From Phycisphaerales bacterium (GTDB lineage Bacteria > Planctomycetota > Phycisphaerae > Phycisphaerales > SM1A02): a DNA stretch of 64,000 nt. The stretch spans positions 175,056-239,055 of the forward strand of contig JAKVBX010000003.1 of NCBI GenBank assembly GCA_022446795.1, given 5' to 3'. Position numbers and translations under genes: made by a program. The notes beneath the pieces were generated by a model. It searched no databases. It was not told the DNA's origin and saw only the letters and a list, made by a program, of their open reading frames with translations. Shown here one piece after another: positions 13,855-63,645 of the stretch (its first letter is position 1; every line of letters begins with the position of its first letter).

Positions 13855-15429
13855 TCAGCAGCCCCCGTACCACTTCAGCATCTGGAGCAGATCTTCAACA
13901 TCCACGACGAGGTCGCCATTGAGATCCGCATCACTCTCACCGGTCTGGCCCCATCCGCCAATCACGGCAAGGGCATCATCGACATCGGCATCGCCATCAC
14001 CGTCAGCATCACCCTCGCAGGTACTCTCACACTCGTCGGGCACGCCATTTCCATCCTGGTCCTGGCTGGGACCGTTGGCAATGTCGCAGGCATCCGGGAT
14101 CCCGTTCTCATTGCAATCCGCGGACGGTTCGTAGGCAAAGGTGTGATCAACCAGGTCCTGCCAGGGCTCGCCGTATTCATCTCGCCCCTGCACGAGCGCC
14201 TCGACCATGACCGTGGAATCGAGTCCCATCGCCGTCAATCGGGCAATCCGTACCCCGTGCTGCTCGGAGCAGTCCTGCGACACGAACGGCTGGGCCACCC
14301 CCTGTTCCTGGTCCGCAAGGACATACCAGGTTCCATTACCCACAGAGAGGTCCCCACCACTCTCGAACACCTCCCAGTCAATACCCACGACACCCAGGTT
14401 GTTCTCATCGAAGGGATCGCCGGTCATGTCCAGGGCCCCGATGGTCACACGGCTGTCCAGGTGAAGATCGGCAGCAAAGGGGTAGAACGCCGGGTTGATT
14501 TCCTTGGAGGTCGGCCCACCATAGGCATCCTGGTAGAAGCCATGGGTCGACGCGATCATCTTGGGCTGAACACTGTTGCCCGCGATCGCTTCGATTCGAC
14601 TGCCTTCCGAAACAGCGGCATAGACATCGAATGTCCAACAGGGTTCACCAGTCGAGAGCAGGGAACTCCCGACGATCGAGTGGTGAATATCCACGTACGC
14701 AAGTTTCTCACAGGCCACGGTCGCGCAGGTACTGTCCTCACCATTCCACGACCCACCGGCGGACTGGCAGCTGGCCTCGGTCATGGCGTCGACACATTGT
14801 CCCAGCGCCAGGCAGCAGGCTCCAGTCATCTCCGCGAACTCGTAGTTGATGGTCACCCGGGTCGACAGAGTGCCGGAGTTGTAGATGGCGCAACCACTGC
14901 TCGTACCATTTTCGGTCAACATGCAGAGGTATCCACCGGAAAGTGCTTCCTCGATCACCTCAGGGCTGACCGCCCAGGAGACGGCTGATCCGGAGTACGT
15001 CTGGTTGAGGTAGCTCTGATCGGACGAACTGCGCATCTGCGAGCAGTAGCTCGAGTTGAGAACCTGGGTATTGGCGTCGATCCAGACGTCGACATAGGAC
15101 GCGTAGCAACTGTAGGGCTGGTTCCATCGGATGGTGGCACCGGTGATCTCCGCCCCCTCCGGAACCTGCCCCTCCAGGTCCCAACGCCAGGCCGCCCGTT
15201 CCCGCTCGTGGCCGCAGCCGTAGTAACTGTCGAAACAGCCCGTGAGGACGAAGGTGCTCGCGGAGCTGTTGTAGTAGTTGTAGGGATTGCAGCAGGACGC
15301 GTCATCCACCAGCCCCGACTGGACCGGGTAGACCGTCACGGAACCACTTTGTGCCTGGGCGAGCGAAGGCCATGCAAGCAGAATGGCAAAGACCGTGACC
15401 ATAGCCAGGACGTCATTCATGGAACGCAT
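13855..15429 (-). CDS. Secreted multidomain protein: CC module, GACC repeat, unknown domain, calcium repeats, dockerin
   Basis: 524 residues. Signal peptide (about 1-27), then a beta-rich module (about 30-195) with V-T-V-Y-P-V-Q-S-G and DDASCC, in which AAWRWDLEGQVPEGAEITGA resembles a DNRLRE/CBM96-like domain. One GACC cysteine repeat follows (about 202-240), then a domain of unknown function (about 245-435), a thrombospondin-type-3-like calcium region (DCNENGIPDACD, DQDGNGVPDECE) and a C-terminal EF-hand pair (dockerin-like) opening with C-E-G-D and ending Y-G-G-C. The ATG at 15429 has GGAGAG about 7 nt before it. It is the last gene of a same-strand run; role unknown, presumably extracellular matrix or surface. 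Confidence 0.82.
   Translation of the reverse strand: MRSMNDVLAMVTVFAILLAWPSLAQAQSGSVTVYPVQSGLVDDASCCNPYNYYNSSASTFVLTGCFDSYYGCGHERERAAWRWDLEGQVPEGAEITGATIRWNQPYSCYASYVDVWIDANTQVLNSSYCSQMRSSSDQSYLNQTYSGSAVSWAVSPEVIEEALSGGYLCMLTENGTSSGCAIYNSGTLSTRVTINYEFAEMTGACCLALGQCVDAMTEASCQSAGGSWNGEDSTCATVACEKLAYVDIHHSIVGSSLLSTGEPCWTFDVYAAVSEGSRIEAIAGNSVQPKMIASTHGFYQDAYGGPTSKEINPAFYPFAADLHLDSRVTIGALDMTGDPFDENNLGVVGIDWEVFESGGDLSVGNGTWYVLADQEQGVAQPFVSQDCSEQHGVRIARLTAMGLDSTVMVEALVQGRDEYGEPWQDLVDHTFAYEPSADCNENGIPDACDIANGPSQDQDGNGVPDECESTCEGDADGDGDADVDDALAVIGGWGQTGESDADLNGDLVVDVEDLLQMLKWYGGC
14135..14541. repeat. Copy A of a 407-bp duplicated coding block
   Basis: About 95 percent identical (some 22 substitutions counted by eye, no indels) to 17261-17667, in the same frame. 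It encodes about residues 297-432 of the unknown domain. The sequence on both sides is related but more diverged. Confidence 0.9.
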
Positions 15430-15473
15430 AAAAGAACTCTCCAAGAGGAACGAGGGCAGCCTATTGCTGAAAC

Positions 15474-16238
15474 TCAGGGACATTCGCCATACACCGACAG
15501 CATCACGAGGACATCGTCGACCGTGATGACCGCATCGCCGTCGAGGTCATACTCCGAAGACGTCGTGCCAAAGGCGCCGATCAATGCCAGCAGGTCATCG
15601 ACATCGACGGCATTGTCACCGTCGAAGTCGCCCTCGCATGTGTCCAGTTCATACTCGATGATGATCCGAACTCCCAGATCACCACTGCTGTGCATCAGAC
15701 AACCCTGTCCGCTGGACCCGATCTGATTGACAAGGCTCAGATACCCTCCGTTCAGGGCTTCGTCCATGACAGCCTCGTCAAGAGACCACGAGAAGGTTGA
15801 GGCGTAGTAGGCCTGGTCTGAATACTGCTGATCCGGATTGCTGCGAATCTGTTGACAGTAGCTCGAACTGAGAACCTGGGTACCAGCATCAATCCAGAGA
15901 TAGACACTCCATGCATCGCATAGACCCGGGTGATTCCAATGAATATGAGCCGATGTCGCGACAGCGGTTTCAGGCAAGGCGTTTTCAAGATCCCAACGCC
16001 AGGCACCGCGCTCACGATCATTCCAACAGCCGTAGTGGGGGTCACTGAAGCACCCAGTCAGCATGTATGTCAGAGAACTGCTGTTTGAATAGACGTATGG
16101 ACTGCAGCAGGAGGCATCATCAATGAGGCCACTCTGGACCGGATAGACGGTCACTGACTCTGCCTGGAGCTTGCCTGCCATCAACATGAATGACAAGACA
16201 ATCAACATGCTGATCACAACACGCCACCTCATGGACAA
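15474..16238 (-). CDS. Small secreted dockerin protein with CC module
   Basis: 254 residues: signal peptide (about 1-26), one CC module (27-200) closely related to the N-terminal module of the 13855-15429 product (V-T-V-Y-P-V-Q-S-G-L-I-D-D-A-S-C-C, then RERGAWRWDLE), and a dockerin-like EF-hand pair (C-E-G-D-F-D-G-D ... Y-G-E-C-P). In effect it is a short version of its neighbour without the middle domains. Its start lies inside the upstream gene (10-base overlap with 16229-16984), so it is translationally coupled. No enzymatic motif is seen. Confidence 0.82.
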   Translation of the reverse strand: MSMRWRVVISMLIVLSFMLMAGKLQAESVTVYPVQSGLIDDASCCSPYVYSNSSSLTYMLTGCFSDPHYGCWNDRERGAWRWDLENALPETAVATSAHIHWNHPGLCDAWSVYLWIDAGTQVLSSSYCQQIRSNPDQQYSDQAYYASTFSWSLDEAVMDEALNGGYLSLVNQIGSSGQGCLMHSSGDLGVRIIIEYELDTCEGDFDGDNAVDVDDLLALIGAFGTTSSEYDLDGDAVITVDDVLVMLSVYGECP

Positions 16239-16984
16239 GCTCCATACAGGGAGAGGATCGCCAGCACGTCTTCGATCGTGATATGGTCATCACCATCGAG
16301 GTCATACTCCGGTGCATAGCTGCCGAAGGCACCAATGATGGCCAGTACGTCATCGACATCGACGCTGGAGTTGCCGTCGAAGTCACCTTCGCAGGTCTCC
16401 AGGTCATATTCCACCAGCAGCACCGCAGTCGGCTCCAGGTAGGCTATCGAACCCCAGTACTCTCCGACTGACATGCTCATCACCAACCATTCCGTGCTGT
16501 CCTGCGCCTCGATGATGTCATTTGTCGCCAGTTCGTATTCCATTGACTCCAGTTGCCCCGGTTGCTCGAAGAGCTCGCCAGAACCGTACAGGTCATTCCC
16601 ATCCTGGATGGTAAAGGTCCCTGTCCCAGCCTTCATGCCGAGCTTGAACAAGTGGCCCGCCTGGCCATAGGCATTGTCTCCCCAGAGACGTACCTTCAGC
16701 GAGCTGATGACCGCGCCCTCTGGAATCTCTGACAAGTTGAATCGCCACATGGAGATCTTCTTGCCGCTGTAGGTGTAATCACCCGTGTTCAGACTGCACC
16801 AGCCACCCCGCATCGTGGGCGGGTTGTTGTACCAATAGGTGTTGGCGCACTGGAACCCCCCGCTCCACCAGAGCTGGACGGCCTGCGTGTCCTCGATCTC
16901 GACAACCTGAGTCTCCGCATGACCGTATCCGGCCAAAGCAAGAAGACAACCAGCCATCATTGATTTGCAAAGACTCATCAACAT
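16229..16984 (-). CDS. Small secreted dockerin protein, DNRLRE-like module
   Basis: 251 residues with a signal peptide (about 1-24, ending Y-G-H-A), a beta-rich module in which ISMWRFNLSEIPEGAVISSL gives the clearest DNRLRE/CBM96-like signature of the group, and a C-terminal EF-hand pair (C-E-G-D-F-D-G-N ... Y-G-A-C-P). Aromatic residues near the N-terminus (WWSGG, TYWYNN) could serve carbohydrate binding, but that is inference. It overlaps the upstream gene by 7 bases and the downstream gene by 10, so it is the middle of a coupled operon. Confidence 0.82.
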   Translation of the reverse strand: MLMSLCKSMMAGCLLALAGYGHAETQVVEIEDTQAVQLWWSGGFQCANTYWYNNPPTMRGGWCSLNTGDYTYSGKKISMWRFNLSEIPEGAVISSLKVRLWGDNAYGQAGHLFKLGMKAGTGTFTIQDGNDLYGSGELFEQPGQLESMEYELATNDIIEAQDSTEWLVMSMSVGEYWGSIAYLEPTAVLLVEYDLETCEGDFDGNSSVDVDDVLAIIGAFGSYAPEYDLDGDDHITIEDVLAILSLYGACP

Positions 16985-18531
16985 CCTCCGAAGTAGTTCA
17001 GCATTGACAGCAGATCATCAACGTCAACGTCGCCATCGCCATCAAGATCCGCATCCAGATCATCTCCAGCCATGCCGTAGCTTCCGATGACCAGCAGGAG
17101 GTCATCAACATCCGCATCAGCATCGCCATCAACATCACCTTCACAGACATTTTCGCACTCATCAGGAATGCCATTGCCATCCTGATCCTGGCTGTCTCCA
17201 TTGGCGATGTCACAGGTATCTGATACCTGGTTGCCATTGCAATCCTGGACTTCTTCATAGGCAAAGGTGTGATCAACCAGGTCCTGCCAGGGCTCGCCGT
17301 ATTCATCTCGCCCCTGCACGAGCGCCTCGACCATGATCGTGGAATCGAGCCCCATCGCCGTCAATCGGGCAATACGTACCCCGTACTGCTCGGAACAGTC
17401 CTGCGACACGAATGGCTGGGCCACACCCTGTTCCTGGTCCGCAAGGACGTACCAGGTTCCATTACCCACCGAGAGGTCCCCACCACTCTCGAACACCTCC
17501 CAGTCAATACCCACGACACCCAGGTTGTTCTCATCGAAGGGATCACCCGTCATGTCCAGGGCCCCGATCGTCACCCGGCTGTCCAGATGCAGATCCGGCG
17601 CGAAGGGATAGAACGCCGGGTTGATCTCCTTGGATGTCGGCCCACCATAGGCATCCTGGTAGAAGCCATACGTTGAGGAAATCATCTTCTGCTGCAAACT
17701 GTTGCCTGCAACAGCTTCAACCCGATCACCTTCTGCTACGGCAGCGAAGACGTCGACTGTCCAACTGGGCTCACCCGTAGATAGCATGGAACCACCAACG
17801 ATTCGATGATGGAGTTGTGCGTATTCCATCTTCTCGCACTCCACCAAGCCACAGGAACTGTCAACACCACGCCAGGTGCCGCCCTTGGCTGCACAGTCCT
17901 CCTCGGTCAGGCTGTCGAGGCACTGCCCAAGACTCATGCAGCAGGCACCGATGACTGGCGCAACATCAATGGCGATGCTCAGGCGAGCAGCATTGGGACC
18001 GGTGTTATGGACATCCACACCACCACTGTTGGATACGTAGGTATAGATCGTCAGCATGCCGTCTTCGCGAGCCGATTCCACGATGTTCGCCGGCAGCGAA
18101 AAGTTGAATGTCCCCCCCCAGAAGTATCCGTTGTACTGCCATTCAGGCGAATTGATGACTGAGTAGGCCATGGTATTGCTCAAGGAACCACTGGTTCCCC
18201 TGATCCCAACCGTGGTGTCTCCACCCATGTCACTGAATTCCGTCTGACCCTTGAAATGGCAGTAAAGAATGCTGGCATCCTCGGGGATACTCGAAAGATC
18301 AAAATGCCAGAAGGCGCCTCGTTTCGAACCAATGCAGGACCCTGCGTAGCTAGAGCATTTCTGGGTGTAGGTGAATTCGCCATTCCACCACGACAGCGAG
18401 CTGTAGGTGCAGCAATTGGTAGCACCCATGCTGGCGGTCTGAGACCAGGGGATCTCGATGGTCTCCACCGCGCCAATGGCACTCGCAGCAGGCAGGAACA
18501 TCATGGCAATCACTCTTGAGACGAACTTCAT
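16978..18531 (-). CDS. Secreted multidomain dockerin protein, paralogue of the 13855-15429 product
   Basis: 517 residues with the same domain order as the 13855-15429 product: signal peptide (about 1-20), CC module (N-C-C-T-Y-S; RGAFWHFDLSSIPEDASI), a GACC repeat (about 195-232), the unknown domain (about 238-425), calcium repeats (DCNGNQVSDTCD) and a dockerin-like pair (C-E-G-D-V ... F-G-G-C). The ATG at 18531 is chosen because it begins the signal peptide and has AGGAAAGG about 7 nt upstream; a longer open reading to 18837 would run into the next gene. A 407-bp block is nearly identical to its paralogue. First gene of a four-gene operon. Confidence 0.82.
   Translation of the reverse strand: MKFVSRVIAMMFLPAASAIGAVETIEIPWSQTASMGATNCCTYSSLSWWNGEFTYTQKCSSYAGSCIGSKRGAFWHFDLSSIPEDASILYCHFKGQTEFSDMGGDTTVGIRGTSGSLSNTMAYSVINSPEWQYNGYFWGGTFNFSLPANIVESAREDGMLTIYTYVSNSGGVDVHNTGPNAARLSIAIDVAPVIGACCMSLGQCLDSLTEEDCAAKGGTWRGVDSSCGLVECEKMEYAQLHHRIVGGSMLSTGEPSWTVDVFAAVAEGDRVEAVAGNSLQQKMISSTYGFYQDAYGGPTSKEINPAFYPFAPDLHLDSRVTIGALDMTGDPFDENNLGVVGIDWEVFESGGDLSVGNGTWYVLADQEQGVAQPFVSQDCSEQYGVRIARLTAMGLDSTIMVEALVQGRDEYGEPWQDLVDHTFAYEEVQDCNGNQVSDTCDIANGDSQDQDGNGIPDECENVCEGDVDGDADADVDDLLLVIGSYGMAGDDLDADLDGDGDVDVDDLLSMLNYFGGC
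17261..17667. repeat. Copy B of the 407-bp duplicated coding block
   Basis: Matches 14135-14541 at a constant offset of 3126 bases with about 22 substitutions and no gaps. The few amino-acid changes (for example A to P, H to Y, V to I) show that most differences are silent. Confidence 0.9.
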
Positions 18532-18793
18532 CTTGTGACCTTTCCTGGGAGCCCTCCGTGGACTCGCCCATAGCAATCCAAACTCATCAGACTTCGATCT
18601 GCCGATCACACCACTCCGTGTTCCCGGCTCCTGGCAGGACTGTTCCAATTCCGGCTGCTCCCGACGGCCCGATCGACGAACCGTGAAGGGAGGGAGGAGC
18701 GCTGCACAGAGGCTGTTGCCGCTTGCCCGAAGGGCCGGGATGACGCCGTCAAACCGACGAAGCCCTTGAGCAGACCTGTAGCGTGTGAGGAAC

Positions 18794-19543
18794 TCATGCA
18801 CAGCCCCCGTACCCCCCCAGAAGGAGCAGAATGTCATCCACAGTGATTTCGTTGTCCCCGGTCAGGTCATGATCGGGGTCCTCCTCCCCGAAGACCCCGA
18901 TCAGGCTGAGCAGGTCATCAACATCAACGGTGCCGTCACCGTCGTAGTCCCCCCGGCACTGCTGATCGACATGCATGACGATCCGGGCGCCACTGGTGCC
19001 GCTGTTGACGAGGTTCATGCTGTAGGTATTGCTGATTGCCGCGACGACCATCAGGTATCCCCCACTGGCATTGGCGTAGACGGACAACGGCACGTTGTAG
19101 GTGTAGGTGTAGGATCCCGGCCAGTTGATGTACATCACCGCATCAGCGTTGGATATCGTGTCGTTGACGGACGTCGCCGTCAGGCTGCCGGTCGGCACCC
19201 AACGCATGTAGATGGCGCCCGAGCCGTATCCGCCCGAGCGATTTCCGGTGAAGACCATGGCGTCGATGGACTCCCCCTCGGCGAGATCAGGAACCTGGTA
19301 GATCCAGGCTGCCTGATGCTTGTCACCCATGCAGTACCCGCCCTGGTAGGTGCAGGTATTGATGGAGATGGAACTGGGGTTCATCGACAGGGAACTGGTT
19401 CCACAGCAACAGCCCCAGCAATCAGAGGGTGAGGTGCGGGCTGATGTCAACGGCTGCAGAATCTGAACTTCGGCATGGCCAGTCGTTGCCAGCATGCCAA
19501 GAACAGACAGGCTGAACGCCATCAAGGCAGCAATACGAGACAT
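18794..19543 (-). CDS. Small secreted dockerin protein with cysteine-cluster module
   Basis: 249 residues: signal peptide (about 1-24), a module opening with SDCWGCCCGTSS and containing AAWIYQVPDLAEGESIDAM, a divergent relative of the modules in the next four genes, then a dockerin-like EF-hand pair (C-R-G-D-Y-D-G-D ... Y-G-G-C-A). GGGAG precedes the ATG. A 262-nt gap separates it from the following gene, so it may be its own unit or the promoter-proximal gene of the array. I saw nothing I could name in that gap apart from a small GCCC/GGGC hairpin near 18737. Confidence 0.8.
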   Translation of the reverse strand: MSRIAALMAFSLSVLGMLATTGHAEVQILQPLTSARTSPSDCWGCCCGTSSLSMNPSSISINTCTYQGGYCMGDKHQAAWIYQVPDLAEGESIDAMVFTGNRSGGYGSGAIYMRWVPTGSLTATSVNDTISNADAVMYINWPGSYTYTYNVPLSVYANASGGYLMVVAAISNTYSMNLVNSGTSGARIVMHVDQQCRGDYDGDGTVDVDDLLSLIGVFGEEDPDHDLTGDNEITVDDILLLLGGYGGCA

Positions 19544-23052: not shown

Positions 23053-24441
23053 TCAGGAACAGTCCGAGCCCCAGGCCGCAAGCACGGCCAGGACATCACT
23101 GGAATCGCAGTCCCCGTCGTTGTCCGCATCGCCCGTGCCATCGGTCGAACCGTAGGCACCGACAACGGCCAGGATGTCGTTGACATCGACCACATCATCA
23201 TCGTTGACATCCCCAGGGCAGAACTCATCGACCGGGTCCAGGATACTGAAGGGATACTTGACGGCACGCATGATGTTGGCCGGCGTGATGTGCTGCCAGG
23301 CGATCGATCCGTCCGGTTCGATCTCCCGGATCTCCCGGTTTGGACCGTCCGTGGCCAGGTAGTTCCCGTTGGGAAGCTTGTAGACACCGCACAGGTGAGT
23401 GCCATGAAAGTCAGGTGACTCGTAGAAGAAGACGTAGTCACCTGGCACCGGCCCCCAGGGCTCGTCGTCGTCCAGGGCATAGGTGCCGTCCGGGAGAAGC
23501 GGCGGGATGAACTCGATGACATCGGAGCTGTTGTCGTCATTCCCATTGTTGAAGAGCAGCAGGTTCTCTTCTCCCGGCAGGCCTGGATCAATCCAGTTGA
23601 CCCCGTGAACATTCCACAGGACATGGTCCCCACTGCGTTGATAGTTCGAGGGATTTCCCCATCGATACAGAATGTCACCGGCTGGACCGGCCGCCTCCTC
23701 CGTGGTGATGCCGTGATCGATGATGAAGATCTCGTCCAGTCGATTGGAACTGAAGACGATCTGGTCCAGGACCGGGTGGTAGTCCAGCGCATTGACGTGG
23801 ATCCAGTCCCCGGGGCTGTTGCCCTGTCCCACATTGCCGACGTTGATATCCATCTTCCCGGGGTTCTCCGAGATCACACCGTAATTGGGCAGGCTCGGGT
23901 CCACATCCTGGACCAGGTGATCCCACAGGTGCCAACTCCAGACGATGTCGCCACTGGTCGGCCCCGTGGGCATGACCTCGACGATCTGCGTCGGCCAGAT
24001 CTCGCTGTTGAGCCCCACTCGACCGGCCGCCTGTCCTTCGGCCTGGGTCTTGCGTTCCCACGCCACCATCAGGACATTTCCATTGGGCATGACGCAGATG
24101 TCATGATGCGGCTGGTTGTCAGAGTCTGAAAAGGTGAAGTCCCACAGGATGTCGCCGTCCCAGTTGAAGTGCTGGATGCGTCCACCCTTGGCCGCCCCGT
24201 TCATCGGACCATTGGCCCGGCAGGGCCGCATCAATTCGCCGCCGGGGAGCAGGTAAGGCGTGCTGGCAATCGAATCAGCGCCATCCCACTGCTGGATGAC
24301 CTGTCCGGTGTTGTCGATCAACGTCGTCTGGTGTGAGAACTGGCCGTTGATCGGGTTGTAGATCGTGTAGCCCTCGTAGGCATCAAACGCCATGGCCGAA
24401 CCAGCGATGACTGGAATGGCAAGACCACTGATGGACTTCAT
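23053..24441 (-). CDS. Secreted arylsulfotransferase-like beta-propeller protein with dockerin
   Basis: 462 residues: signal peptide (about 1-17), then a six-bladed-propeller-like region in the style of the arylsulfate sulfotransferase family: HHDICVMPNGNVLMVAWE, VWSWHLWDHL, ALDYHPVLDQIVFSSN, ILYRWGNPSNY, VHGVNWID, YKLPNGNYLATDG. The repeated H and PNG-N elements fit; whether sulfotransferase activity is kept is not clear. The tail is a dockerin-like EF-hand pair (C-P-G-D-V-N-D-D ... G-S-D-C-S). The ATG at 24441 is chosen for its signal peptide and a G-rich Shine-Dalgarno (GGGGGAAG) just upstream. It lies 62 nt behind the 24504-25175 gene on the same strand. Confidence 0.82.
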   Translation of the reverse strand: MKSISGLAIPVIAGSAMAFDAYEGYTIYNPINGQFSHQTTLIDNTGQVIQQWDGADSIASTPYLLPGGELMRPCRANGPMNGAAKGGRIQHFNWDGDILWDFTFSDSDNQPHHDICVMPNGNVLMVAWERKTQAEGQAAGRVGLNSEIWPTQIVEVMPTGPTSGDIVWSWHLWDHLVQDVDPSLPNYGVISENPGKMDINVGNVGQGNSPGDWIHVNALDYHPVLDQIVFSSNRLDEIFIIDHGITTEEAAGPAGDILYRWGNPSNYQRSGDHVLWNVHGVNWIDPGLPGEENLLLFNNGNDDNSSDVIEFIPPLLPDGTYALDDDEPWGPVPGDYVFFYESPDFHGTHLCGVYKLPNGNYLATDGPNREIREIEPDGSIAWQHITPANIMRAVKYPFSILDPVDEFCPGDVNDDDVVDVNDILAVVGAYGSTDGTGDADNDGDCDSSDVLAVLAAWGSDCS

Positions 24442-24503: not shown

Positions 24504-25175
24504 TCAGGCGCAGGGCCCCCAAGCCTCGATCACCAGGAGAATGTCGTTCACGCCGACGATTCCGTCTCCATCCACGTCGGCATCGGAACCCGACATGCCA
24601 TACTCGCCGATCAGTTCCAGGATGTCATTGACATTCGTCGACCCGTCGCCATCGATGTCGGTCGGGCAGTTGGACCCGATGACCTCCACGTTCATGGTGC
24701 CGTTGAGATACAACTCCACCAACTGGACCGTGACCTCACCGAAGATGGGGATATCCGTCGTGGCCGTCCCCAGCACGATGTTGGTCATGGCCAGATCCCC
24801 GGAACCCTCCGCATCGAGGCCGAAGCTCACGTCGAAGGCAATCGTCACTGGATCCGGCGGCGGTGGCTCAACCACTGATTCCGTACCCCCGCCGATGGGG
24901 CAAGGACCATCGAAGAGGCCTCCGAAGGTGGTCGATGGCAGTTGATCCGAGACATCGATCGGACCGAACTCGATGCCGAAGTAGCTCACCAGGACGGAGA
25001 CCCCCGTGACCTCGAACTCAAGGTCATAGGTCGCACCATCGGGGCGGACCTCGGAGGGGCTCTCCCAGAACACGTCCTGGCCGGCCGTCTCGATATACAG
25101 CGGCCAACTGGCCGAATCGGCTCCGCCCAGGGCGGCTGCCACGATACAGATGGAGGTGAACATGTCATCCATCAT
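24504..25175 (-). CDS. Secreted dockerin protein of unknown function
   Basis: About 223 residues. Several starts are possible between 25163 and 25181; 25175 and 25163 both give a short signal-like stretch (MFTSICIVAAALGGADSAS). The body is a beta-rich domain with no motif I recognise, with a proline tract E-P-P-P-P-D-P in the middle. It ends in a dockerin-like EF-hand pair (C-P-T-D-I-D-G-D ... W-G-P-C-A). Upstream codons to 25367 are open but run through a terminator hairpin and are not believed. Probably cotranscribed with the arylsulfotransferase-like gene. Confidence 0.7.
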   Translation of the reverse strand: MMDDMFTSICIVAAALGGADSASWPLYIETAGQDVFWESPSEVRPDGATYDLEFEVTGVSVLVSYFGIEFGPIDVSDQLPSTTFGGLFDGPCPIGGGTESVVEPPPPDPVTIAFDVSFGLDAEGSGDLAMTNIVLGTATTDIPIFGEVTVQLVELYLNGTMNVEVIGSNCPTDIDGDGSTNVNDILELIGEYGMSGSDADVDGDGIVGVNDILLVIEAWGPCA

Positions 25176-25323: not shown

Positions 25324-27783
25324 TCAGCTACCAAATTCCGCCAGCAAGGCCAGCAGGTCGTCGACATCGGTCAGTCCATCACCGTTGACGTCGCCCTCGT
25401 CCGACACCCCGTAAGCGCTCAACAAACGAAGCAGGTCATCCACATCCGTATCACCGTCCTGGTCCAGGTCCGTCGGCGAATACACCGGCGTGCACTCCAG
25501 CGAGAGGCTGCCGGAGCCACTGATCGTGCCATTCCAGCCACCAACCCGCACGAGGTACTGCTCACCCGCGGAGACGGGAATGGTCAACTCGGACGTGTAG
25601 TTGTCGCAACCGACGCCGTCGTCATTACATCCCAGGAGCTCACGTGTACCACAATCACCGAACCAGGTGTACGCGACCAGGTCACTGTCATAGTCGACCG
25701 AGTCACACGTCGAGATCGTCCCGATGCCCGTGCACTCAGCCGTCCACAGGAACCAGATGTCATTGACCGTGACCCCCCCATCACCCTCGGTATCACACTC
25801 GGGGTGGGCGTTGCCATCCGTGGTGGCGTAGCGCGTGGTGAAGTCCAGGCTGCCACTCGTTACCGGTATGGCATTCGAGCAGTCATCATTGGCCGGCCGG
25901 ACGAACACCGTGATCGGATCATCCACGACGCCGACCGTGTCATCTCCCGAGGAACTGGCGATGGCACCGATCCAGATCTCCGATGACAGTTCACCGGCCA
26001 GCCCGGCCGGCAACGTCAACACGTCAGAACCGTTCAAGACGGCACCGCCATCCAGGTCGCTGTACACGGTCGTTCCCAGGTAGATGTCGGTGTAGGAGAT
26101 CGTCGGCCCATCGGAGGCGTAGTAGTCGACCCAGATGTTGGAGCCGGTGTTGTCCCCGCCCACGTTCTCCAGGACCCAGTCAGCCGTAATCGAGCTGCCG
26201 TCCAGAACCTCGCCCGCGGGGGTGACCGCGAAATCGGTCATGTCCAAAGTCGTGACACCATCGATCACCAGTTCAAGCGTATCCCAGCCCTGCGTGGTGT
26301 TGTTGCTCGAGTCCGTATCGGCATCTGATTCCATCGTGACCCCCACGTAGTAGGTCCCACTGGCAAGATCGGTGGGAATCAGGCAGTACATGGCCACGTC
26401 GTAGTTCATCATCTCGTCGATGACGGCATTCTCGATGGTGAACGACTGGATGGGCCGGTCACCAGCATCAATCTGATCATCCTCCGACAACCACACGGTG
26501 AATGACCAGTCCTCGGTCGCCGAAGCGTTGCACGGATTCGATACCGTGAACACGAAGTTCGGAATGACATCCCCTACGGCCAGCTGGCTGGCGGATGATC
26601 GAGCGTACAGGGCGTGGGGATCGAAGTCCGTGCCACGGCCCGCCGGGATCATGTCGTCATAGCAGTCATCCATCATGAAGTCCTGGATGTGGACGTACTG
26701 CCCCCTCCATTGCCGGTCGGAATTGGAACAGATACCGAGGATGTATCGGTTGTCATCCTCCATGTAGTAGGCACTGCTTCCGCTCATGCCGCCCCAGACC
26801 GTATCCAGGCAGTTGCCGCCGCCCGTGAGAACCCGGAACTGGTTGGCCCCGACACAGGTATCAAAGGTCCCGTTCCAGTAGTACATCTGGTTGCCCGTGT
26901 GCAATACGCCGCCCGGGCAACTCTCCGCCGGATATGACGCGTTGTGGAACTGGTAGTTCGCGATGATGCTGGAACACGTCCCACCAGCCGCAAGCGGATG
27001 CCAGCCAACCATCGATCCCACCGGCCGCCTCAGGTTGACGATCCCGACATCCCCATCGAAGTTCCCCCCCTGGCTCCAGGAGGTGTAGACCATCAGGCTC
27101 TTGCTCCAGGAGTCTCCGTAGTAGAAGTCATCGCCCACGCCGTCGAGATCAACATCGGCATACGACGGGATCACGCGAACATAGTCCGCGAAGGCGTTGT
27201 AGGTGATGTTGTTGTTGGTGCGCATGTACAGACAATGCCCCGCCGTGATCACGGTCTGGGCATCGACCAGGGTCCCTGAACCAGAGAACTTCCGCTGTAC
27301 GCCGTTGACGTCCGTGAACCACATCTCCAACTTGCAGTTGCGTCGCCAGGGGATGTCCTCCTCGACGACGACCTGCACCATGTTGTTGAACAGGCGATAG
27401 TCACCCACGATTTCGCCGTCACCGTGGTGACCCATCGGGGCATGACCCTCGAAGCCTTCCGGTCCGGTCCGGAGCAGGCCGGACGCCGAGGGGGCGATGG
27501 GACCATTGATCCTGGTGACCACCCCGGTTTCAACGTCATAGTGGACCACTTCCGTGGACCCTTCGAACTTTGGGTCGCCGGGGTCATCCGAGTCCGGCAT
27601 GGCTGAAAGCCCCGGCCCTTCGGACTCCGGGTACTCGAACGGATCCGCCTCGGGCAGGATCGGCATGAACACACCTTCGACTGGCTCGGCCACCCCCGCT
27701 CCCGATGACATCCCCGACTCGGCCAGCCCCACGCCCGGCATCACGATGGTCAATGCAACGAACGGAACGATTCTTTTGTTCAT
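25324..27783 (-). CDS. Secreted chymotrypsin-fold serine protease with CARDB-like domain and dockerin
   Basis: 819 residues. Signal peptide (about 1-22), a propeptide-like region to about 145, then a trypsin-like domain with the triad H183 (VITAGHC), D245 (FDGDVGIV) and S334 (GGMSGSSAY), closest in style to V8/glutamyl endopeptidases. A CARDB-like beta domain (about 395-620, LEIVIDGVTTLDMTDFAV type) and a pre-peptidase C-terminal-like domain (about 635-765, NDDCSNAIPV, LGCNDDGVGCD) follow. The dockerin-like pair at the end lacks the flanking cysteines seen in its relatives. The role is extracellular proteolysis. GAGG precedes the ATG and an intrinsic terminator follows the stop. Confidence 0.87.
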   Translation of the reverse strand: MNKRIVPFVALTIVMPGVGLAESGMSSGAGVAEPVEGVFMPILPEADPFEYPESEGPGLSAMPDSDDPGDPKFEGSTEVVHYDVETGVVTRINGPIAPSASGLLRTGPEGFEGHAPMGHHGDGEIVGDYRLFNNMVQVVVEEDIPWRRNCKLEMWFTDVNGVQRKFSGSGTLVDAQTVITAGHCLYMRTNNNITYNAFADYVRVIPSYADVDLDGVGDDFYYGDSWSKSLMVYTSWSQGGNFDGDVGIVNLRRPVGSMVGWHPLAAGGTCSSIIANYQFHNASYPAESCPGGVLHTGNQMYYWNGTFDTCVGANQFRVLTGGGNCLDTVWGGMSGSSAYYMEDDNRYILGICSNSDRQWRGQYVHIQDFMMDDCYDDMIPAGRGTDFDPHALYARSSASQLAVGDVIPNFVFTVSNPCNASATEDWSFTVWLSEDDQIDAGDRPIQSFTIENAVIDEMMNYDVAMYCLIPTDLASGTYYVGVTMESDADTDSSNNTTQGWDTLELVIDGVTTLDMTDFAVTPAGEVLDGSSITADWVLENVGGDNTGSNIWVDYYASDGPTISYTDIYLGTTVYSDLDGGAVLNGSDVLTLPAGLAGELSSEIWIGAIASSSGDDTVGVVDDPITVFVRPANDDCSNAIPVTSGSLDFTTRYATTDGNAHPECDTEGDGGVTVNDIWFLWTAECTGIGTISTCDSVDYDSDLVAYTWFGDCGTRELLGCNDDGVGCDNYTSELTIPVSAGEQYLVRVGGWNGTISGSGSLSLECTPVYSPTDLDQDGDTDVDDLLRLLSAYGVSDEGDVNGDGLTDVDDLLALLAEFGS

Positions 27784-28199: not shown

Positions 28200-28655
28200 C
28201 TAGTTGATCATTCCAAGGGTGCACTCGATATCCGGCAGGTCGGCACACTGTGGTGCAGAACCCCAGCCATCGAGAACCGCCAGGATGTCATTGACATTGA
28301 CGACGCGATTCCCGTCGACATCATTGGCACAGGCATATCCCTCGGCGGTGTCCGGCATCACGGTCCACGGACTCCAGGACGTCGCTTCAAGACACCATTG
28401 ACCGGGATTCTGCGAACAGTTGTTGTGACTGGTGTTGACGAACTTCGCTTCGACCGTTCCATCGGACCACATCCGGAAGAGATAGACCGCCTCGTACCAG
28501 CCGGCTGGCGAGGTCGAGAATCCCACCACGGTCGGCGGCGGATCGCCGATCGCGACGGTCGCCTCAGCCGGGTTTCGATTCGCAGAGAGGATCACCATCA
28601 CGGCCATGCCGCACAGCAGTCCAACGAGAGGGCCACTCCAGTTCTGACGTGTCAT
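28200..28655 (-). CDS. Small exported protein with a single EF-hand dockerin unit
   Basis: 151 residues. A hydrophobic segment at about 9-25 acts as signal peptide or anchor. A short beta domain (about 35-105, with W-Y-E-A-V-Y-L-F-R-M-W and paired cysteines at N-C-S-Q and Q-W-C) leads into one dockerin-like EF-hand (C-A-N-D-V-D-G-N-R-V-V-N-V-N-D-I-L) and a cysteine-bearing tail. Other dockerin genes here have two EF-hands, so this is a half domain, either degenerate or made to pair with another half. AAGGAAGG precedes the ATG. Function unknown. Confidence 0.72.
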   Translation of the reverse strand: MTRQNWSGPLVGLLCGMAVMVILSANRNPAEATVAIGDPPPTVVGFSTSPAGWYEAVYLFRMWSDGTVEAKFVNTSHNNCSQNPGQWCLEATSWSPWTVMPDTAEGYACANDVDGNRVVNVNDILAVLDGWGSAPQCADLPDIECTLGMIN

Positions 28656-38386: not shown

Positions 38387-39892
38387 CTACTCGCACTCGC
38401 CCCAGGCGCTGATGACGATGAGAATGTCATCGACGTCCGTATCCCCGTCGCCGTCGGTGTCACCGGATGGGTCATCCGTGCCATACGCGCCGAGGACGGC
38501 CAGGACGTCATTCACGTCAACCACGGCGTCGCCATTGGTATCCCCGGGACAGTCACTGCCCCCACCGCAGGCATCCGAGTCGGAACACGCCGTGCCTCCA
38601 CCGCCCCACGTGCCACCGAAGGCATCGCAGGTCTCCTCTTCCAGGTCGAAGCAGTCACCAGCACCGGTGCAGCACCAGCCCTCGGGCGCCGGGCACTCGA
38701 TCGATGCACAGGAGGTGCCATCACCCTGGAACTTGCCGCCGAAGGCGACGCAGGATTCCGGGCTCGCATTCGAAACGCACGAACCGTCGGCCAGGCAACA
38801 GGCCCCCTCTGGGAAGCAGACGACATTGGAGCAGATCTGCCCGATCAGCCAGGTCCCACCAAAGGCACCGCAGAGTTCCTCCGAGGCATCGACACACTCC
38901 CCAGTCGATGGGACGCAGCAGGCGCCCTCTGGTTCCGGACAGGGTTCGTCGCCACAGACCGTGTCCTCACCGAGGAACGTGCCGCCAATCACGTCGCATT
39001 GACCACTGGTGGACTCCGTACAGGTTCCATCGACTCGACAGCAGGCGCCCAGGACACTGCCGCAGTCGAAGGGTGTCACGGTGGCTCGCATGACCCAGTC
39101 GCCACTGGGGCGACAGAAGTTTGGCAACTGCTGGAACGATGTCCAACCCTCACCGCACAAGCAGAATGCTCCCGTGACCATGTCGATCCAATTCCCCGAT
39201 GGTGATGCCAATCCGGAGGTATCCGTCGTCGGGAAGGCATTCAGAGTCGCTGCCGGGGGGTCCAGGCAGGGGGTGCCGGGCGAGTGATGTGCATCGATGC
39301 GGAACGCCACCGTGAATGACTGGGTGCCCTGGTCCGCGATGTAGATCTGCTGCGCATCGTCCGGGGCAATGGAGAACTGGATGATCGTTCCGGTGGTTCC
39401 CGGGGGCATCTCCAGGTGAGGAAGAATGACCCCGTCGGAGCTGTACTCCGCCACGATGACCCCACCGGAATCGGGTGTATTGGCGATCACGATGATGGAC
39501 CACTCCGTGGTCGTGCTGACCGTTGCCCCAGATGTGGCAAACAGGATTTCGGCGGTGTCGAGCTTCAGGGGAAAGGCACTGGCCGGCATCGTGAAAGACA
39601 CGGCCGCACTTTCACCCTGTTCGATTCCCGCCTGAAGCGTGTACTCGCCAGCTCCGAAGTTCGAATCCGTGTGGGCCTTGACCTCCGGCGGGCAATCTCC
39701 ACGAGATGACGTGCGGCGCGTCGTCACCGTGGCGGTCGGGTCCGATGGTGAGTAGACGATCCGAAGCACATCCACCGAGTCCAGCGTCGCGTCAGTGGCC
39801 TGCCCACGGAGGTCCGCTCGGGCCAGGCTGCTGCCTACGAGAATCACCACCCCCCAGGAAATCGTCATGGTGAGAGCCGTGATCCGACGCAT
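38387..39892 (-). CDS. Secreted protein with four GxCC cysteine repeats and dockerin
   Basis: 501 residues: signal peptide (about 1-26), a beta-rich domain of unknown function (about 30-280), four roughly 40-residue cysteine repeats (282-442) of the form G-x-C-C-x(3-5)-C-x(7-8)-C-x(2-4)-G-G-x-F/W-...-C-x(3-5)-C, then a dockerin-like EF-hand pair (C-P-G-D-T-N-G-D ... W-G-E-C-E). Single copies of the same repeat occur in the two large proteins at 13855 and 16978. The six cysteines per repeat suggest disulfide-bonded knots. The ATG at 39892 has AAGGAG upstream. It may be an adhesive or matrix protein. Confidence 0.8.
   Translation of the reverse strand: MRRITALTMTISWGVVILVGSSLARADLRGQATDATLDSVDVLRIVYSPSDPTATVTTRRTSSRGDCPPEVKAHTDSNFGAGEYTLQAGIEQGESAAVSFTMPASAFPLKLDTAEILFATSGATVSTTTEWSIIVIANTPDSGGVIVAEYSSDGVILPHLEMPPGTTGTIIQFSIAPDDAQQIYIADQGTQSFTVAFRIDAHHSPGTPCLDPPAATLNAFPTTDTSGLASPSGNWIDMVTGAFCLCGEGWTSFQQLPNFCRPSGDWVMRATVTPFDCGSVLGACCRVDGTCTESTSGQCDVIGGTFLGEDTVCGDEPCPEPEGACCVPSTGECVDASEELCGAFGGTWLIGQICSNVVCFPEGACCLADGSCVSNASPESCVAFGGKFQGDGTSCASIECPAPEGWCCTGAGDCFDLEEETCDAFGGTWGGGGTACSDSDACGGGSDCPGDTNGDAVVDVNDVLAVLGAYGTDDPSGDTDGDGDTDVDDILIVISAWGECE
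38567..39049 (-). repeat. Four tandem GxCC cysteine-rich repeats (protein level)
   Basis: Units begin at GACCRVDG, GACCVPST, GACCLADG and GWCCTGAG, each about 40 residues with six cysteines and a GG-F/W step. DNA identity between units is low, so the expansion is old or under diversifying selection. Confidence 0.8.
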
Positions 39893-46172: not shown

Positions 46173-47792
46173 TCAGTTGCCGAAGTTGGCCAGGACGATC
46201 AGCATGTCATCGACATTGACGACGTTGTCGTCGTTGAAGTCGGCGGAACAGTCGCCGGTGCATCCCCACTGGGCGATGGCCACCAGGACATCATTCACGT
46301 CCACGTCGCCGTCACCGTCGCCGTCACCGGGCAGCGAGTCGCCCTCGACGATGATGATGCCACTGGAGTCGCCGCCGGTGTTGCCGTCGCCATCACGGGC
46401 CAGGACTCGCAGGCGTCCCTGGTTGGTCGGTGTATCGGGGATGCAGACCGTCGTTGACCCCGCCGGAGACAGGTTGGCCTGGAGCGTGCTCCAGGACGCG
46501 CCGTCATCGGTGGAGTACTCGATATCGACCGAGACCACGTCGTACTCGTCGTCATCGCTGATCCAGGAAATGCTGGGGCAGTCGGCCGGGTCGATGATGC
46601 CTTCCACGGGTGTCTGGAGGCAGGTCGTGGGAGAGATCCCACCGACATGGGCTGGCATGTGCATGCAGATGCAGTGCATGACGCCGGCGGAGTAGGCCAG
46701 CGAGTCACAGACGATCTGCACCACCTGCCGACCCGGCATCGCGGCCTGGACGGCCGCAACGGCCTGGTTGTCGTAGGTGTTGGAGATGTCGTTGTACTCC
46801 GGCAGGAGCACGAGATCATTGCAGACCACCATGTTGGTGTAGGTGTAGTGCGTTCCGCCCTGCGCGAAGGCCGGGGTGCGGAAGACCTCCCAGCCGAGGC
46901 CCTGGTAGTAGTTGGCCGCCCAGTCACAGATCTGATCCTGGGTGCTGCCCGACTGCGTCGGCCAGTCACTGATGATGATCCGATCCTCGCCACACATCAG
47001 CATCCACATGTCGATGTGCTGCGTGTAGTCCACCGACGTGGGGAAGGCATCGTGGATGTAGGTCTCGACGTTCTGGTACTCACGCCAGTACTGCACGATC
47101 TGCGACTCGGACAGGCTCGGGTTCTCGTCCGCAATCAACTCGGTCGCTGCAGCGATGCCGTTGCCGTTGCCGTGCCAGTTGCCGCCACCATGCACCAGGG
47201 GCAGCTCATACACCTCGTGACCGAACAGCGGGCCGAAGTAGCCGCTGTAGGCGTTGTCGTTGGGGCGGGGTCGGTTGTAGGTGTGATCGACGACCACGCG
47301 GCAGTCACCCTCGTAGGCATAGCGTGGGCCATAGTCCCGGATCCAGACGGTGTTGGTGGACCGGACCACGATCACCACCCGATCGGGATCTGCTCCCGCG
47401 GCGATGCAGTTGTTGCGGGCCGAGTTGCCTTCACTGTTGCTGTCGCAGGCGATGAAGACCTTGGCATTGCCGATCGTCGTGATCGCGGCCGCCATCTGGG
47501 ACAGGATCGATGAATACCCTTCCCAGGCCAGGAGGATGCCATCCATGTCCTCGAATTCCGAGGCCGTCCGGATCGGACCCAGGGGCGGTGGCGTCGCACC
47601 GCGGGGAGCCGGGACGGGCTGACCGCCGAGGAATCGGTCCTCGACCTCGGTCATGAACTTGGGGATCAGGGCCCCCTCGGGGAAGATCAGTTCGCCATCC
47701 TGCAGGATGGGCTGGTCATGGGCCGGGGGTGGCGAGACCTGGTCAGTGGAACTGATCGCCAGGACAAGGGCAGCAAGGGCAAATGACGGCAT
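46173..47792 (-). CDS. Secreted peptidylarginine/agmatine deiminase-like enzyme with dockerin
   Basis: 539 residues: signal peptide (about 1-18), then a PPAD/agmatine deiminase-type catalytic domain (about 70-385) with IRDYGP (D153), HGGGNWHGNGNG (201-212), HIDMWM (H259, D261) and the nucleophile in G-V-M-H-C374-I-C. These are the Asp/His/Asp/Cys residues of guanidino-group modifying enzymes of this branch. A beta-sandwich (about 395-475) and a dockerin-like EF-hand pair follow; this dockerin lacks the usual flanking cysteines. It would convert arginine-type groups to citrulline or hydrolyse agmatine outside the cell. GGAGAG precedes the ATG. Confidence 0.85.
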   Translation of the reverse strand: MPSFALAALVLAISSTDQVSPPPAHDQPILQDGELIFPEGALIPKFMTEVEDRFLGGQPVPAPRGATPPPLGPIRTASEFEDMDGILLAWEGYSSILSQMAAAITTIGNAKVFIACDSNSEGNSARNNCIAAGADPDRVVIVVRSTNTVWIRDYGPRYAYEGDCRVVVDHTYNRPRPNDNAYSGYFGPLFGHEVYELPLVHGGGNWHGNGNGIAAATELIADENPSLSESQIVQYWREYQNVETYIHDAFPTSVDYTQHIDMWMLMCGEDRIIISDWPTQSGSTQDQICDWAANYYQGLGWEVFRTPAFAQGGTHYTYTNMVVCNDLVLLPEYNDISNTYDNQAVAAVQAAMPGRQVVQIVCDSLAYSAGVMHCICMHMPAHVGGISPTTCLQTPVEGIIDPADCPSISWISDDDEYDVVSVDIEYSTDDGASWSTLQANLSPAGSTTVCIPDTPTNQGRLRVLARDGDGNTGGDSSGIIIVEGDSLPGDGDGDGDVDVNDVLVAIAQWGCTGDCSADFNDDNVVNVDDMLIVLANFGN

Positions 47793-61251: not shown

Positions 61252-63645
61252 TCAGCAGGCGCCCCAGCCGGCGATCACGATCAGCACATCGTTGACGTCG
61301 ACAACACCATTGCCATCAAGGTCACTCTCGGCATCAGTACTGCCGAAGGCTGCGAGAATCGTGAGCAGGTCGTCAACATCGATCGTCCCGCTCCCGTCAA
61401 CATCACCCGGGCAGAGGACTTCGCAGTCCAGGACCTCCAGGGAGACATTGTCGATACCCGCTTCCACGAGTGATGGCTGACCGGCATCCTGGACGGAGAA
61501 CCGAAGGCGCATCTGGGACGTGGGCACGACGAAGTCACCGACGATGAACGAAGCCGTCTCCCAGGACTGGTTCGTGCCCAGGGTGGCCTGGACGAAGGTC
61601 CACGAGCCGCCACCGTCATTGCTGATCTCGGTAATGAGCTCATCCGTCGATTGGCTGTCGTACATCCATCGCGAGTAGGCGATGGTGCCGTCGATGTCCT
61701 CGAGGGAGAAGACCGGCGAGAGCAGGCGGGTCGGACCACCGTCCACGTCGGCTTCACCCGGTGAACCGGGATCCGTTCCGTTCTGCGTGATGTAGCAGAT
61801 GACGGCATCCGATCCGGCCGTGGCATCATCCTCGGGCTGGGGCTGGTCCTGGCCGTAGATCGTGCCGTCTGGATCGACGCGTTCCCAGGCACCGGTCTCG
61901 AGCGAGGGGTCATTCTCGACCGTCCACTCGGGTGATGGCGGCGCTTCGAATTCCTCCCGCTGAACGATGATCGAGCCATTGGCGATGATCGATGAATAGG
62001 GCGAGGCAGCACCCGCGGGCGGATCCGTGAACTGCCCTTCGCCGGTCATGCTGGCCTGGAACCAGTAGCTGAACTTCTGCGTGCAGGTTCCGGCTGGAAG
62101 CGTGGCCCGGTAGGCATTACCACCGAGGTCCTCGAGCGTCAGTTCATTGGCGCTGCCACCATCGACGGCAAGGAACATCCGGCCGCTGCCCGGCTCGATG
62201 GCCCCCTCGCCGATGAGGTCGAGTTGGAAGCGAAGCGTGTAGGCCTGTCCCGGCGCGATGTACCCGGGCAGGCCATCGGGGTAGGAGAACACGATCCCGG
62301 TCGGGGGCTGGTTCATCCACACCTCGGTCGAGGCGCAACGCCCCACGACCATGTCCATCCAACCATCACCGTTGATGTCGATCAACGCCACGTCATGAAC
62401 GCCGGTCCGCTGGCTGACTCCGAGACCGGTCGGCTCCAGGGAGAACGTCACGTCGGGCACGTCACCACGGTTGCGGAAGATGTGCGTTTCACGGCTGCAG
62501 CCGGGAATGTCGACATCAACATCCGTGATGATGACGTCCTGGTTGCCATCGTTATTCAGGTCGACGATGTAGGCATCGCCACCGAAACCGTTGGTAATCG
62601 AGTCGAAGGTCCGCTCGTTGAAATTGGCATAGCCATCGGAGCCGTTACCCGTGTTCAGGTAGTAGGCATCCACGCCATCGTCCGTGACAATCATGTCGAG
62701 CCGGCCGTCACCGTTGAGATCACCGGTTTCCACGAAATACGGTGCCCGCTCATCGTAGATCTCGTACCCGACGAACCAGCCCTGGTTGCCGGGATCGTTG
62801 TAGGTGATCGCCACGTGCTGAGGCGGATTGAGCGAGGTCTGCTTGACCACGTCCAGGGCACCGTCATCGTTCATGTCCGCAATGACACTGGCCGCACCGA
62901 AGGCGGACTCACGCATCTCGAAGGTCAAGCGTGCATCACTCTGATCCGTGAAGTACCCGTTGCCATCATTGATCAGCAACTTGTTGTTGTAATCGTAGAT
63001 CTGGGTGGGACCGGAATCGTAGTCACCGAAGTACAGGTCGAGATCGCCGTCGCCATCCATGTCGCCCGCCGCAACCGAGCAGAACCGGGGGCCGGCCGTC
63101 GGGTGCATCCGCGGGATGCGGCCATCCTCGTACCGGAAACCCTGCCAGATGCCGTTGTCCTCACCGAGGTTGATGTAGACCCGCGGATGCGAAAGGTGCT
63201 TCGAGTCGTTGTCCGTCAACGTGGTGGCCGTGACCACATCGAGCCAACCATCACCGTTCAGGTCCGCGAGCTTCACGTCGCGATCGTTGGTCGGTGTCAG
63301 AAAGCCCTGGTCCCCCGCGACGTCCGATGCCGTGGCGTAGGCCGATGTCCGGTCAACGAGTACACCACCCTCGTTCATGAGGAGCAGGTTGATGTCCCGG
63401 CCCTCCGAGGTGAATGGCTCCTTCCGGACGATGACCAGGTCGCTGTCACCGTCGCCGTCAACATCGCCGACCGCGTAGTCCTTCTCCTGGACATCACCGG
63501 CTCCCAGGTTGGAGTCCACCGACAGTCGTACGGCGGTCTCGTCGGAAAAGTCGACCCAACCCCCCCCGCTTCCAGCCAACAGGACGTCTGTCATCAGCAG
63601 ACCCGAGGCCAGCATGGTCATCGCAGGGATTGTCTTGTTCATCAT
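61252..63645 (-). CDS. Secreted FG-GAP/VCBS repeat protein with dockerin
   Basis: 797 residues. Signal peptide (about 1-24), then seven FG-GAP/VCBS repeats with calcium loops (DVDGDGDSDLVIV, DLNGDGWLDVVTA, DMDGDGDLDLYFG, DMNDDGALDVVK, DLNGDGRLDMIVT, DLNNDGNQDVIIT, DINGDGWMDMVVG), forming an integrin-type beta-propeller (about 45-400). Two beta-sandwich regions follow (about 410-560 and 570-735; the second resembles a MAM/LamG-like domain) and a dockerin-like EF-hand pair (C-P-G-D-V-D-G-S ... W-G-A-C). It probably serves surface binding. GAGAG precedes two tandem ATGs. Confidence 0.87.
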   Translation of the reverse strand: MMNKTIPAMTMLASGLLMTDVLLAGSGGGWVDFSDETAVRLSVDSNLGAGDVQEKDYAVGDVDGDGDSDLVIVRKEPFTSEGRDINLLLMNEGGVLVDRTSAYATASDVAGDQGFLTPTNDRDVKLADLNGDGWLDVVTATTLTDNDSKHLSHPRVYINLGEDNGIWQGFRYEDGRIPRMHPTAGPRFCSVAAGDMDGDGDLDLYFGDYDSGPTQIYDYNNKLLINDGNGYFTDQSDARLTFEMRESAFGAASVIADMNDDGALDVVKQTSLNPPQHVAITYNDPGNQGWFVGYEIYDERAPYFVETGDLNGDGRLDMIVTDDGVDAYYLNTGNGSDGYANFNERTFDSITNGFGGDAYIVDLNNDGNQDVIITDVDVDIPGCSRETHIFRNRGDVPDVTFSLEPTGLGVSQRTGVHDVALIDINGDGWMDMVVGRCASTEVWMNQPPTGIVFSYPDGLPGYIAPGQAYTLRFQLDLIGEGAIEPGSGRMFLAVDGGSANELTLEDLGGNAYRATLPAGTCTQKFSYWFQASMTGEGQFTDPPAGAASPYSSIIANGSIIVQREEFEAPPSPEWTVENDPSLETGAWERVDPDGTIYGQDQPQPEDDATAGSDAVICYITQNGTDPGSPGEADVDGGPTRLLSPVFSLEDIDGTIAYSRWMYDSQSTDELITEISNDGGGSWTFVQATLGTNQSWETASFIVGDFVVPTSQMRLRFSVQDAGQPSLVEAGIDNVSLEVLDCEVLCPGDVDGSGTIDVDDLLTILAAFGSTDAESDLDGNGVVDVNDVLIVIAGWGAC

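What the first reader, a model, noticed from the sequence alone, without database searches (positions are those of the whole stretch)
13855..19543. Cysteine pair brackets the dockerin-like domain and is gained or lost as a unit
In ten of thirteen domains a cysteine stands directly before the first EF-hand (C-E-G-D, C-P-G-D, C-R-G-D) and a second is within two residues of the protein end (G-G-C, G-E-C-P, G-P-C-A). The domains at 25324 and 46173 lack both, and the one at 28200 has only one EF-hand. Known dockerins have their two ends close together, so this looks like a covalent clasp.
Basis: partly seen in the sequence, partly recalled or inferred. Interest (0 to 1): 0.62.

Follow-up and report, generated by a model that had tools for sequence, protein, structure and literature searches.

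The report
Disulfide-stapled ends of bacterial dockerin domains
About 150 proteins of this Phycisphaerae-type bacterium, many apparently exported, end in the same small calcium-binding "dockerin" domain, and two cysteines that bracket the domain come and go together so strictly, also in related genomes, that they very probably form a disulfide bond stapling the domain's two ends together.

Summary
Ten of the window's 13 domains carry both cysteines, 25324 and 46173 carry neither, and 28200 has a degenerate second EF-hand. In the whole genome (164 domains, strict columns) 136 have both, 22 neither and 6 one. Across four genomes plus scattered relatives (543 domains) 417 have both, 99 neither and 27 one (Fisher 1e-77). 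Most of the 27 are cut off, misaligned or compensated by a cysteine at a nearby position.

An independent second pair lies in the linker between the EF-hands, at repeat-equivalent positions. Coupling is strong within pairs (phi 0.87 and 0.91) and near zero between them, which predicts N–C and linker–linker disulfides. AlphaFold2 models (mean pLDDT 93) have the dockerin fold and place the C-terminal tail against EF loop 1.

The domain is already catalogued: NCBIfam NF041540 ("GC-type dockerin") runs exactly from the first cysteine to the last. A non-covalent clasp between dockerin ends is published. The covalent version, its symmetric twin and the compensating shifts were not found in the papers searched. 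No Pfam cohesin was found in the genome, so the docking partner is unknown. No disulfide has been measured.

The parts
13858..14019 (-). GC-type dockerin, Cys codons 14017-14019 (N) and 13858-13860 (C)
15477..15638 (-). GC-type dockerin, Cys 15636-15638 (N) and 15480-15482 (C)
16232..16393 (-). GC-type dockerin, Cys 16391-16393 (N) and 16235-16237 (C)
16981..17145 (-). GC-type dockerin, Cys 17143-17145 (N) and 16981-16983 (C)
18797..18958 (-). GC-type dockerin, Cys 18956-18958 (N) and 18800-18802 (C); modelled with AF2 (pLDDT 93)
23056..23220 (-). GC-type dockerin on an arylsulfotransferase-like protein, Cys 23218-23220 (N) and 23059-23061 (C), plus an unpaired Cys 23107-23109
24507..24668 (-). 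GC-type dockerin, Cys 24666-24668 (N) and 24510-24512 (C)
25327..25479 (-). dockerin without any cysteine (neither of the pair)
   Evidence: a close homologue in the same genus also lacks both
28203..28331 (-). degenerate dockerin with a single EF-hand; N Cys 28329-28331 and two further Cys
38390..38551 (-). GC-type dockerin, Cys 38549-38551 (N) and 38393-38395 (C)
46176..46334 (-). dockerin on an agmatine-deiminase-like protein: no N/C pair but a linker pair, Cys 46260-46262 and 46248-46250; conserved in homologues of related genomes
61255..61413 (-). GC-type dockerin, Cys 61411-61413 (N) and 61255-61257 (C)
63704..63871 (-). GC-type dockerin with both pairs: N/C Cys 63869-63871 and 63707-63709; linker Cys 63794-63796 and 63782-63784; modelled with AF2 (pLDDT 93)

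Best explanation
Each domain is a C-terminal calcium-binding dockerin (two EF-hand loop-helix units) on an exported or surface protein. The Cys three residues before EF-hand 1 and the Cys about three residues after the last helix form an intradomain disulfide. It staples the N- and C-terminal ends together and replaces the hydrophobic or aromatic 'clasp' of cellulosomal dockerins. A second, optional disulfide in the linker (3 residues after helix 1 to 3 residues before EF-hand 2) is the pseudo-two-fold mate of the first. Likely effect: it locks the domain against unfolding, proteolysis or calcium loss outside the cell. Shown: co-occurrence, the connectivity pattern, the predicted fold. Inferred: the bond itself, its effect, and that the domain docks or anchors.
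For: N x C table 136/22/1/5 in the genome and 417/99/15/12 in 543 domains, seen separately in three genera of one family; nearly invariant 'both' in a different family of the order. Redundancy-weighted phi N-C 0.87 and L1-L2 0.91, all N/C-to-linker cross pairs within 0.08 of zero; N-C ranks 6th of 1225 column pairs by APC-corrected mutual information; an odd Cys number in 15% against 41% expected if segments were independent. Same-branch co-changes 56 (N/C) and 77 (L1/L2) against 1-4 for cross pairs. Positions are repeat-equivalent: Asp1 minus 3 and aromatic plus 3 in both pairs. Exceptions compensate nearby: N Cys at Asp1-1 goes with C-side Cys at aromatic-1 (three domains, two genera); N Cys replaced by a Cys at EF-loop-1 position 6 (four domains); one genome has the equivalent on loop 2. 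AF2 model of 18797: its only two strand segments are residues 12-13 (loop 1) and 53-54 (next to Cys55), so they must pair. Fold match 2y3n Z 9.8, rmsd 1.5, 56 residues aligned. Members lacking the pair have L/V/I/M at the N-Cys site in nearly half of cases and mostly end 1-2 residues after the aromatic. A VKOR-family (disulfide-forming) protein is present.
Against: No coordinates, so the Cys-Cys distance was not measured. No biochemical data. Roughly 7 complete discordant domains remain unexplained. The domain tree rests on 40 columns and has almost no supported branch, so the number of independent events is uncertain. Intermolecular (domain-swapped) pairing gives the same covariation.
Confidence: 0.85

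Rival explanations
1. The two cysteines are independent functional thiols; the terminal Gly-Cys in particular is a processing, lipidation or covalent-anchoring site (a sorting signal), and the N-terminal Cys merely belongs to the preceding linker.
For: The last Cys sits 0-4 residues from the C-terminus of about 140 proteins of one genome. No Pfam cohesin was found in the genome, so the anchoring mode is unknown. NCBI calls the proteins 'domain-anchored'.
Against: An anchoring Cys would not need a partner 50 residues away, yet N and C cysteines almost never occur apart and shift together. About 15% of the genome's members lack both and keep the domain.
Confidence: 0.07
2. The cysteines pair between molecules (domain-swapped dimers or disulfide exchange with a receptor) rather than within one domain.
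For: Covariation alone cannot tell intra- from intermolecular pairing. The partner of these dockerins is unknown.
Against: The AF2 monomer already brings the tail beside loop 1. The linker pair, a few residues apart in sequence, sits at the symmetry-equivalent place and is most easily intradomain. Known dockerin ends touch within one chain (PMC4728124).
Confidence: 0.06
3. The coupling is only shared ancestry: two subfamilies, one with and one without the cysteines, without functional linkage.
For: The domains are paralogues; states are inherited stably, for example the agmatine-deiminase-like homologues all lack the pair. Strongly supported branches are too few for a formal pair test.
Against: The best tree needs 73-75 changes of each cysteine, mostly joint. 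Both states occur in three genera with different sequence backgrounds. Relatives of the 25324 family differ in the pair as a unit. Linker and N/C pairs on the same tree are uncoupled.
Confidence: 0.02

Closest known systems
NCBIfam NF041540, GC-type dockerin domain-anchored protein
   Same: Same domain: the model's first position is the N-Cys and its last (67) the C-Cys where it aligns end to end (18794, 23053). At least 27 members of this genome score over its cut-off.
   Different: The window members score under the cut-off (13-28 bits, cut-off 29). Members in the same genomes also lack the pair, carry the linker pair or have shifted cysteines.
Intramolecular clasp of cellulosomal dockerins (R. 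flavefaciens ScaA, C. thermocellum Doc48S Tyr5-Pro66)
   Same: N- and C-terminal ends of the dockerin held together at corresponding places; stabilises the module (PMC4728124, PMC5934362).
   Different: Known clasps are non-covalent aromatic/proline stacking; here a predicted disulfide.
Bacteroides cellulosolvens Cel48 dockerin (PDB 2y3n)
   Same: Closest solved fold, Z 9.8, rmsd 1.5 over 56 residues, and closest sequence.
   Different: No cysteine in the matched stretch; it docks on a type II cohesin, and no Pfam cohesin was found in this genome.
'Planctosome' cohesin/dockerin modules of Nemodlikiaceae (PMC6461901)
   Same: Non-cellulosomal dockerins on exported proteins of freshwater Planctomycetes.
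   Different: That proposal rests on cohesin partners; no Pfam cohesin was found here. Cysteines are not mentioned in the passages read.

Membership tests
Dockerin fold (type I/II, Pfam PF00404 and relatives) | Two EF-hand loop-helix repeats of about 22 residues in about 60 residues | tested here: met
   Alignment A1/A2; AF2 pLDDT 93, match to 2y3n Z 9.8. PF00404 finds 33 places in the genome, most over its cut-off; window members score below it.
Dockerin fold (type I/II, Pfam PF00404 and relatives) | Binds a cohesin | tested here: inconclusive
   No PF00963 match in the genome and in only 2 of 31 genomes searched; a divergent receptor is not excluded.
Dockerin fold (type I/II, Pfam PF00404 and relatives) | Calcium binding | not testable with these tools
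   EF-loop ligands are conserved, binding not measured.
NCBIfam NF041540 GC-type dockerin | Score over the curated cut-off of 29 bits | tested here: inconclusive
   Window members that match have 13-28 bits; at least 27 other members of the genome are over it.
NCBIfam NF041540 GC-type dockerin | C-terminal position, ends in Gly-x-Cys within a few residues | tested here: met
   C-Cys in 141 of 164 domains of the genome; 10 of 13 in the window.
Intramolecular dockerin clasp | Residues at the two ends in contact | tested here: inconclusive
   AF2 secondary structure implies tail-loop 1 pairing; distance not measured; covariation strong.
Intramolecular dockerin clasp | Loss of the contact destabilises the module | not testable with these tools
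   Needs protein.

The most novel reading that the evidence does not exclude
The staple is not only structural: these abundant C-terminal dockerins use the terminal disulfide for redox- or exchange-controlled attachment to an as yet unknown non-cohesin receptor, making a general display system for 100-150 exported proteins per cell.
Probability: 0.1. Interest if true: 0.75.

Novelty: new variant of a known kind. Interest (0 to 1): 0.5.

Why it matters
Dockerins are standard building blocks for protein assembly, and in the papers found their ends are clasped only non-covalently. A natural, widespread covalent clasp, with a symmetric twin and evolutionary swaps of cysteine position, offers hundreds of natural examples for testing how end closure affects stability and docking, and a way to make more robust dockerin tags. 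It also draws attention to a huge set of Phycisphaerae proteins sharing an attachment-type domain without a known receptor.

Tried and rejected
The formal independent-pairs test had only one pair on supported branches, so only a descriptive count on the best tree is given. Structure tools return no coordinates, so no Cys-Cys distance. 28200 was checked for a frameshifted second EF-hand: none in the other frames. The in-frame 'stops inside' matches in G017 that were looked at turned out to be the normal stop after NWG in members lacking the C-Cys, not recoding. The papers by Slutzki 2013 and Peer 2009 are not held. 'GC-type dockerin' appears in no paper of the library. Metal binding by the cysteines was considered and set aside: the EF loops already hold the calcium ligands and the pair is 50 residues apart (inference).

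Full report
WHAT IS THERE. The window lies in a 3.54 Mb assembly (78 contigs) whose relatives by record title are Phycisphaerae/Phycisphaerales MAGs. Thirteen genes on the minus strand end in a short domain made of two EF-hand loop-helix units. Ten have a Cys three residues before the first EF-hand Asp and a second Cys 0-1 residues from the end. 25324 and 46173 have neither; 28200 keeps the N-Cys but has a degenerate second half, with no second EF-hand in other frames.

SCALE. A profile of the 13 domains finds over 150 matches in the genome, almost all at the extreme C-terminus. Six same-genus genomes, the own included, hold 97-150 each; most same-family genomes hold 18-137 and one has none. 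Most window proteins begin with a hydrophobic signal-like segment; a few have uncertain starts (simple hydropathy only).

COVARIATION. In the own genome: both 136, neither 22, N only 1, C only 5. In 543 domains from four genomes and scattered relatives: 417/99/15/12, with each of three same-family genera showing the same association separately. A second Cys pair in the linker occurs in about a quarter of domains. Redundancy-weighted phi is 0.87 for N-C and 0.91 for the two linker cysteines; the N/C-to-linker combinations are within 0.08 of zero. N-C ranks 6th of 1225 column pairs by APC-corrected mutual information; the top pairs mostly join repeat-equivalent or helix positions that separate lineages (my reading). 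An odd number of cysteines occurs in 15% of domains against 41% expected under independence. This predicts connectivity N-C and L1-L2.

GEOMETRY. N-Cys is at Asp1-3 in 402 of 417 and C-Cys at aromatic+3 in 336. The linker cysteines are at aromatic+3 and Asp1-3 of repeat 2 in 93 of 117. The terminal pair is therefore the pseudo-two-fold mate of the linker pair: the junction that the chain makes between repeats 1 and 2 is repeated by the bond between repeats 2 and 1. The AF2 models (pLDDT 93) agree. The 18797 model has only two strand segments, residues 12-13 of loop 1 and 53-54 next to Cys55, which must therefore pair. The 63704 model adds 26-27 (next to Cys28) and 42-43 (loop 2), the equivalent contact. 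The fold matches the B. cellulosolvens dockerin 2y3n (Z 9.8, rmsd 1.5).

EXCEPTIONS. Of 27 discordant domains, about five are cut off at an end of the fetched DNA, two have the C-Cys just outside the counting window and a few are degenerate or misaligned. The informative ones compensate. In three domains from two genera the N-Cys moves to Asp1-1 while the C-side Cys moves to just before the aromatic (L046, L326, L302). In four, the N-Cys is replaced by a Cys at loop-1 position 6, next to where the model puts the tail (L083 twice, L051, L247). Genome G017 has a class without the terminal pair, ending NWG-stop, with three linker cysteines and a Cys at loop-2 position 6, again the symmetric equivalent. 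About seven remain unexplained.

HISTORY. On the best FastTree of the domain core (Cys and linker columns excluded) N changes 75 and C 73 times, 56 on the same branch and in the same direction, mostly losses; L1/L2 77 of 85-86; cross pairs 1-4. Branch support is poor (40 columns), so treat these as descriptive; the formal test had too few supported pairs. Homologues tell the same story. The agmatine-deiminase-like protein 46173 lacks the terminal pair and keeps the linker pair in the same-genus and other relatives examined. A same-genus homologue of 25324 lacks both, while more distant relatives sharing its preceding domain have both. Members without the pair often have L, V, I or M at the N-Cys site and mostly end 1-2 residues after the aromatic, so the tail shortens with the loss.

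KNOWN OR NEW. NCBI has a model for the domain, NF041540, whose first and last positions are the two cysteines; its best scores are in another family of the order. No paper in the library uses the name. Non-covalent clasps between dockerin ends are published and stabilise the module (PMC4728124, PMC5934362), and terminal segments bias the binding mode (PMC5864761). I found no report of a disulfide clasp in the papers searched. It is therefore a covalent variant of a known feature in a catalogued family.

MECHANISM. Shown: predicted fold, co-occurrence, connectivity pattern, compensating shifts. Inferred: the disulfide, and that it protects an exported anchoring domain against unfolding, proteolysis or calcium loss. 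A VKOR-family protein exists in the genome, so oxidative folding of exports is plausible. No Pfam cohesin was found, so what the domain docks to is open.

Noticed in passing
window 46248-46262 and 63782-63796; about 140 of 543 domains elsewhere: A second, independent cysteine pair in the linker between the two EF-hands, at positions repeat-equivalent to the terminal pair.
   Followed up: yes
L260, L267, L268, L274, L276, L280, L290, L252, L255 (genome G017): A four-cysteine variant GPCxxCxxCPA-DLDGDC with no terminal pair and proteins ending exactly NWG; seen only in this genome of those examined.
   Followed up: partly
whole genome G000 and relatives: About 150 copies of the C-terminal dockerin but no Pfam cohesin; one complete same-family genome (G014) has no copies at all. 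The receptor is unknown.
   Followed up: partly
window 13855-19543: Five genes on one strand overlap their neighbours by a few to about 40 bases, all ending in the domain; looks like a tandem-duplicated operon.
   Followed up: no
window 46173-47792: An agmatine-deiminase/peptidyl-arginine-deiminase-like enzyme with a hydrophobic N-terminal segment and a C-terminal dockerin, conserved across the genus.
   Followed up: partly
window 28200-28655: Short protein with a truncated, degenerate dockerin (one EF-hand, three Cys); possibly decaying.
   Followed up: partly
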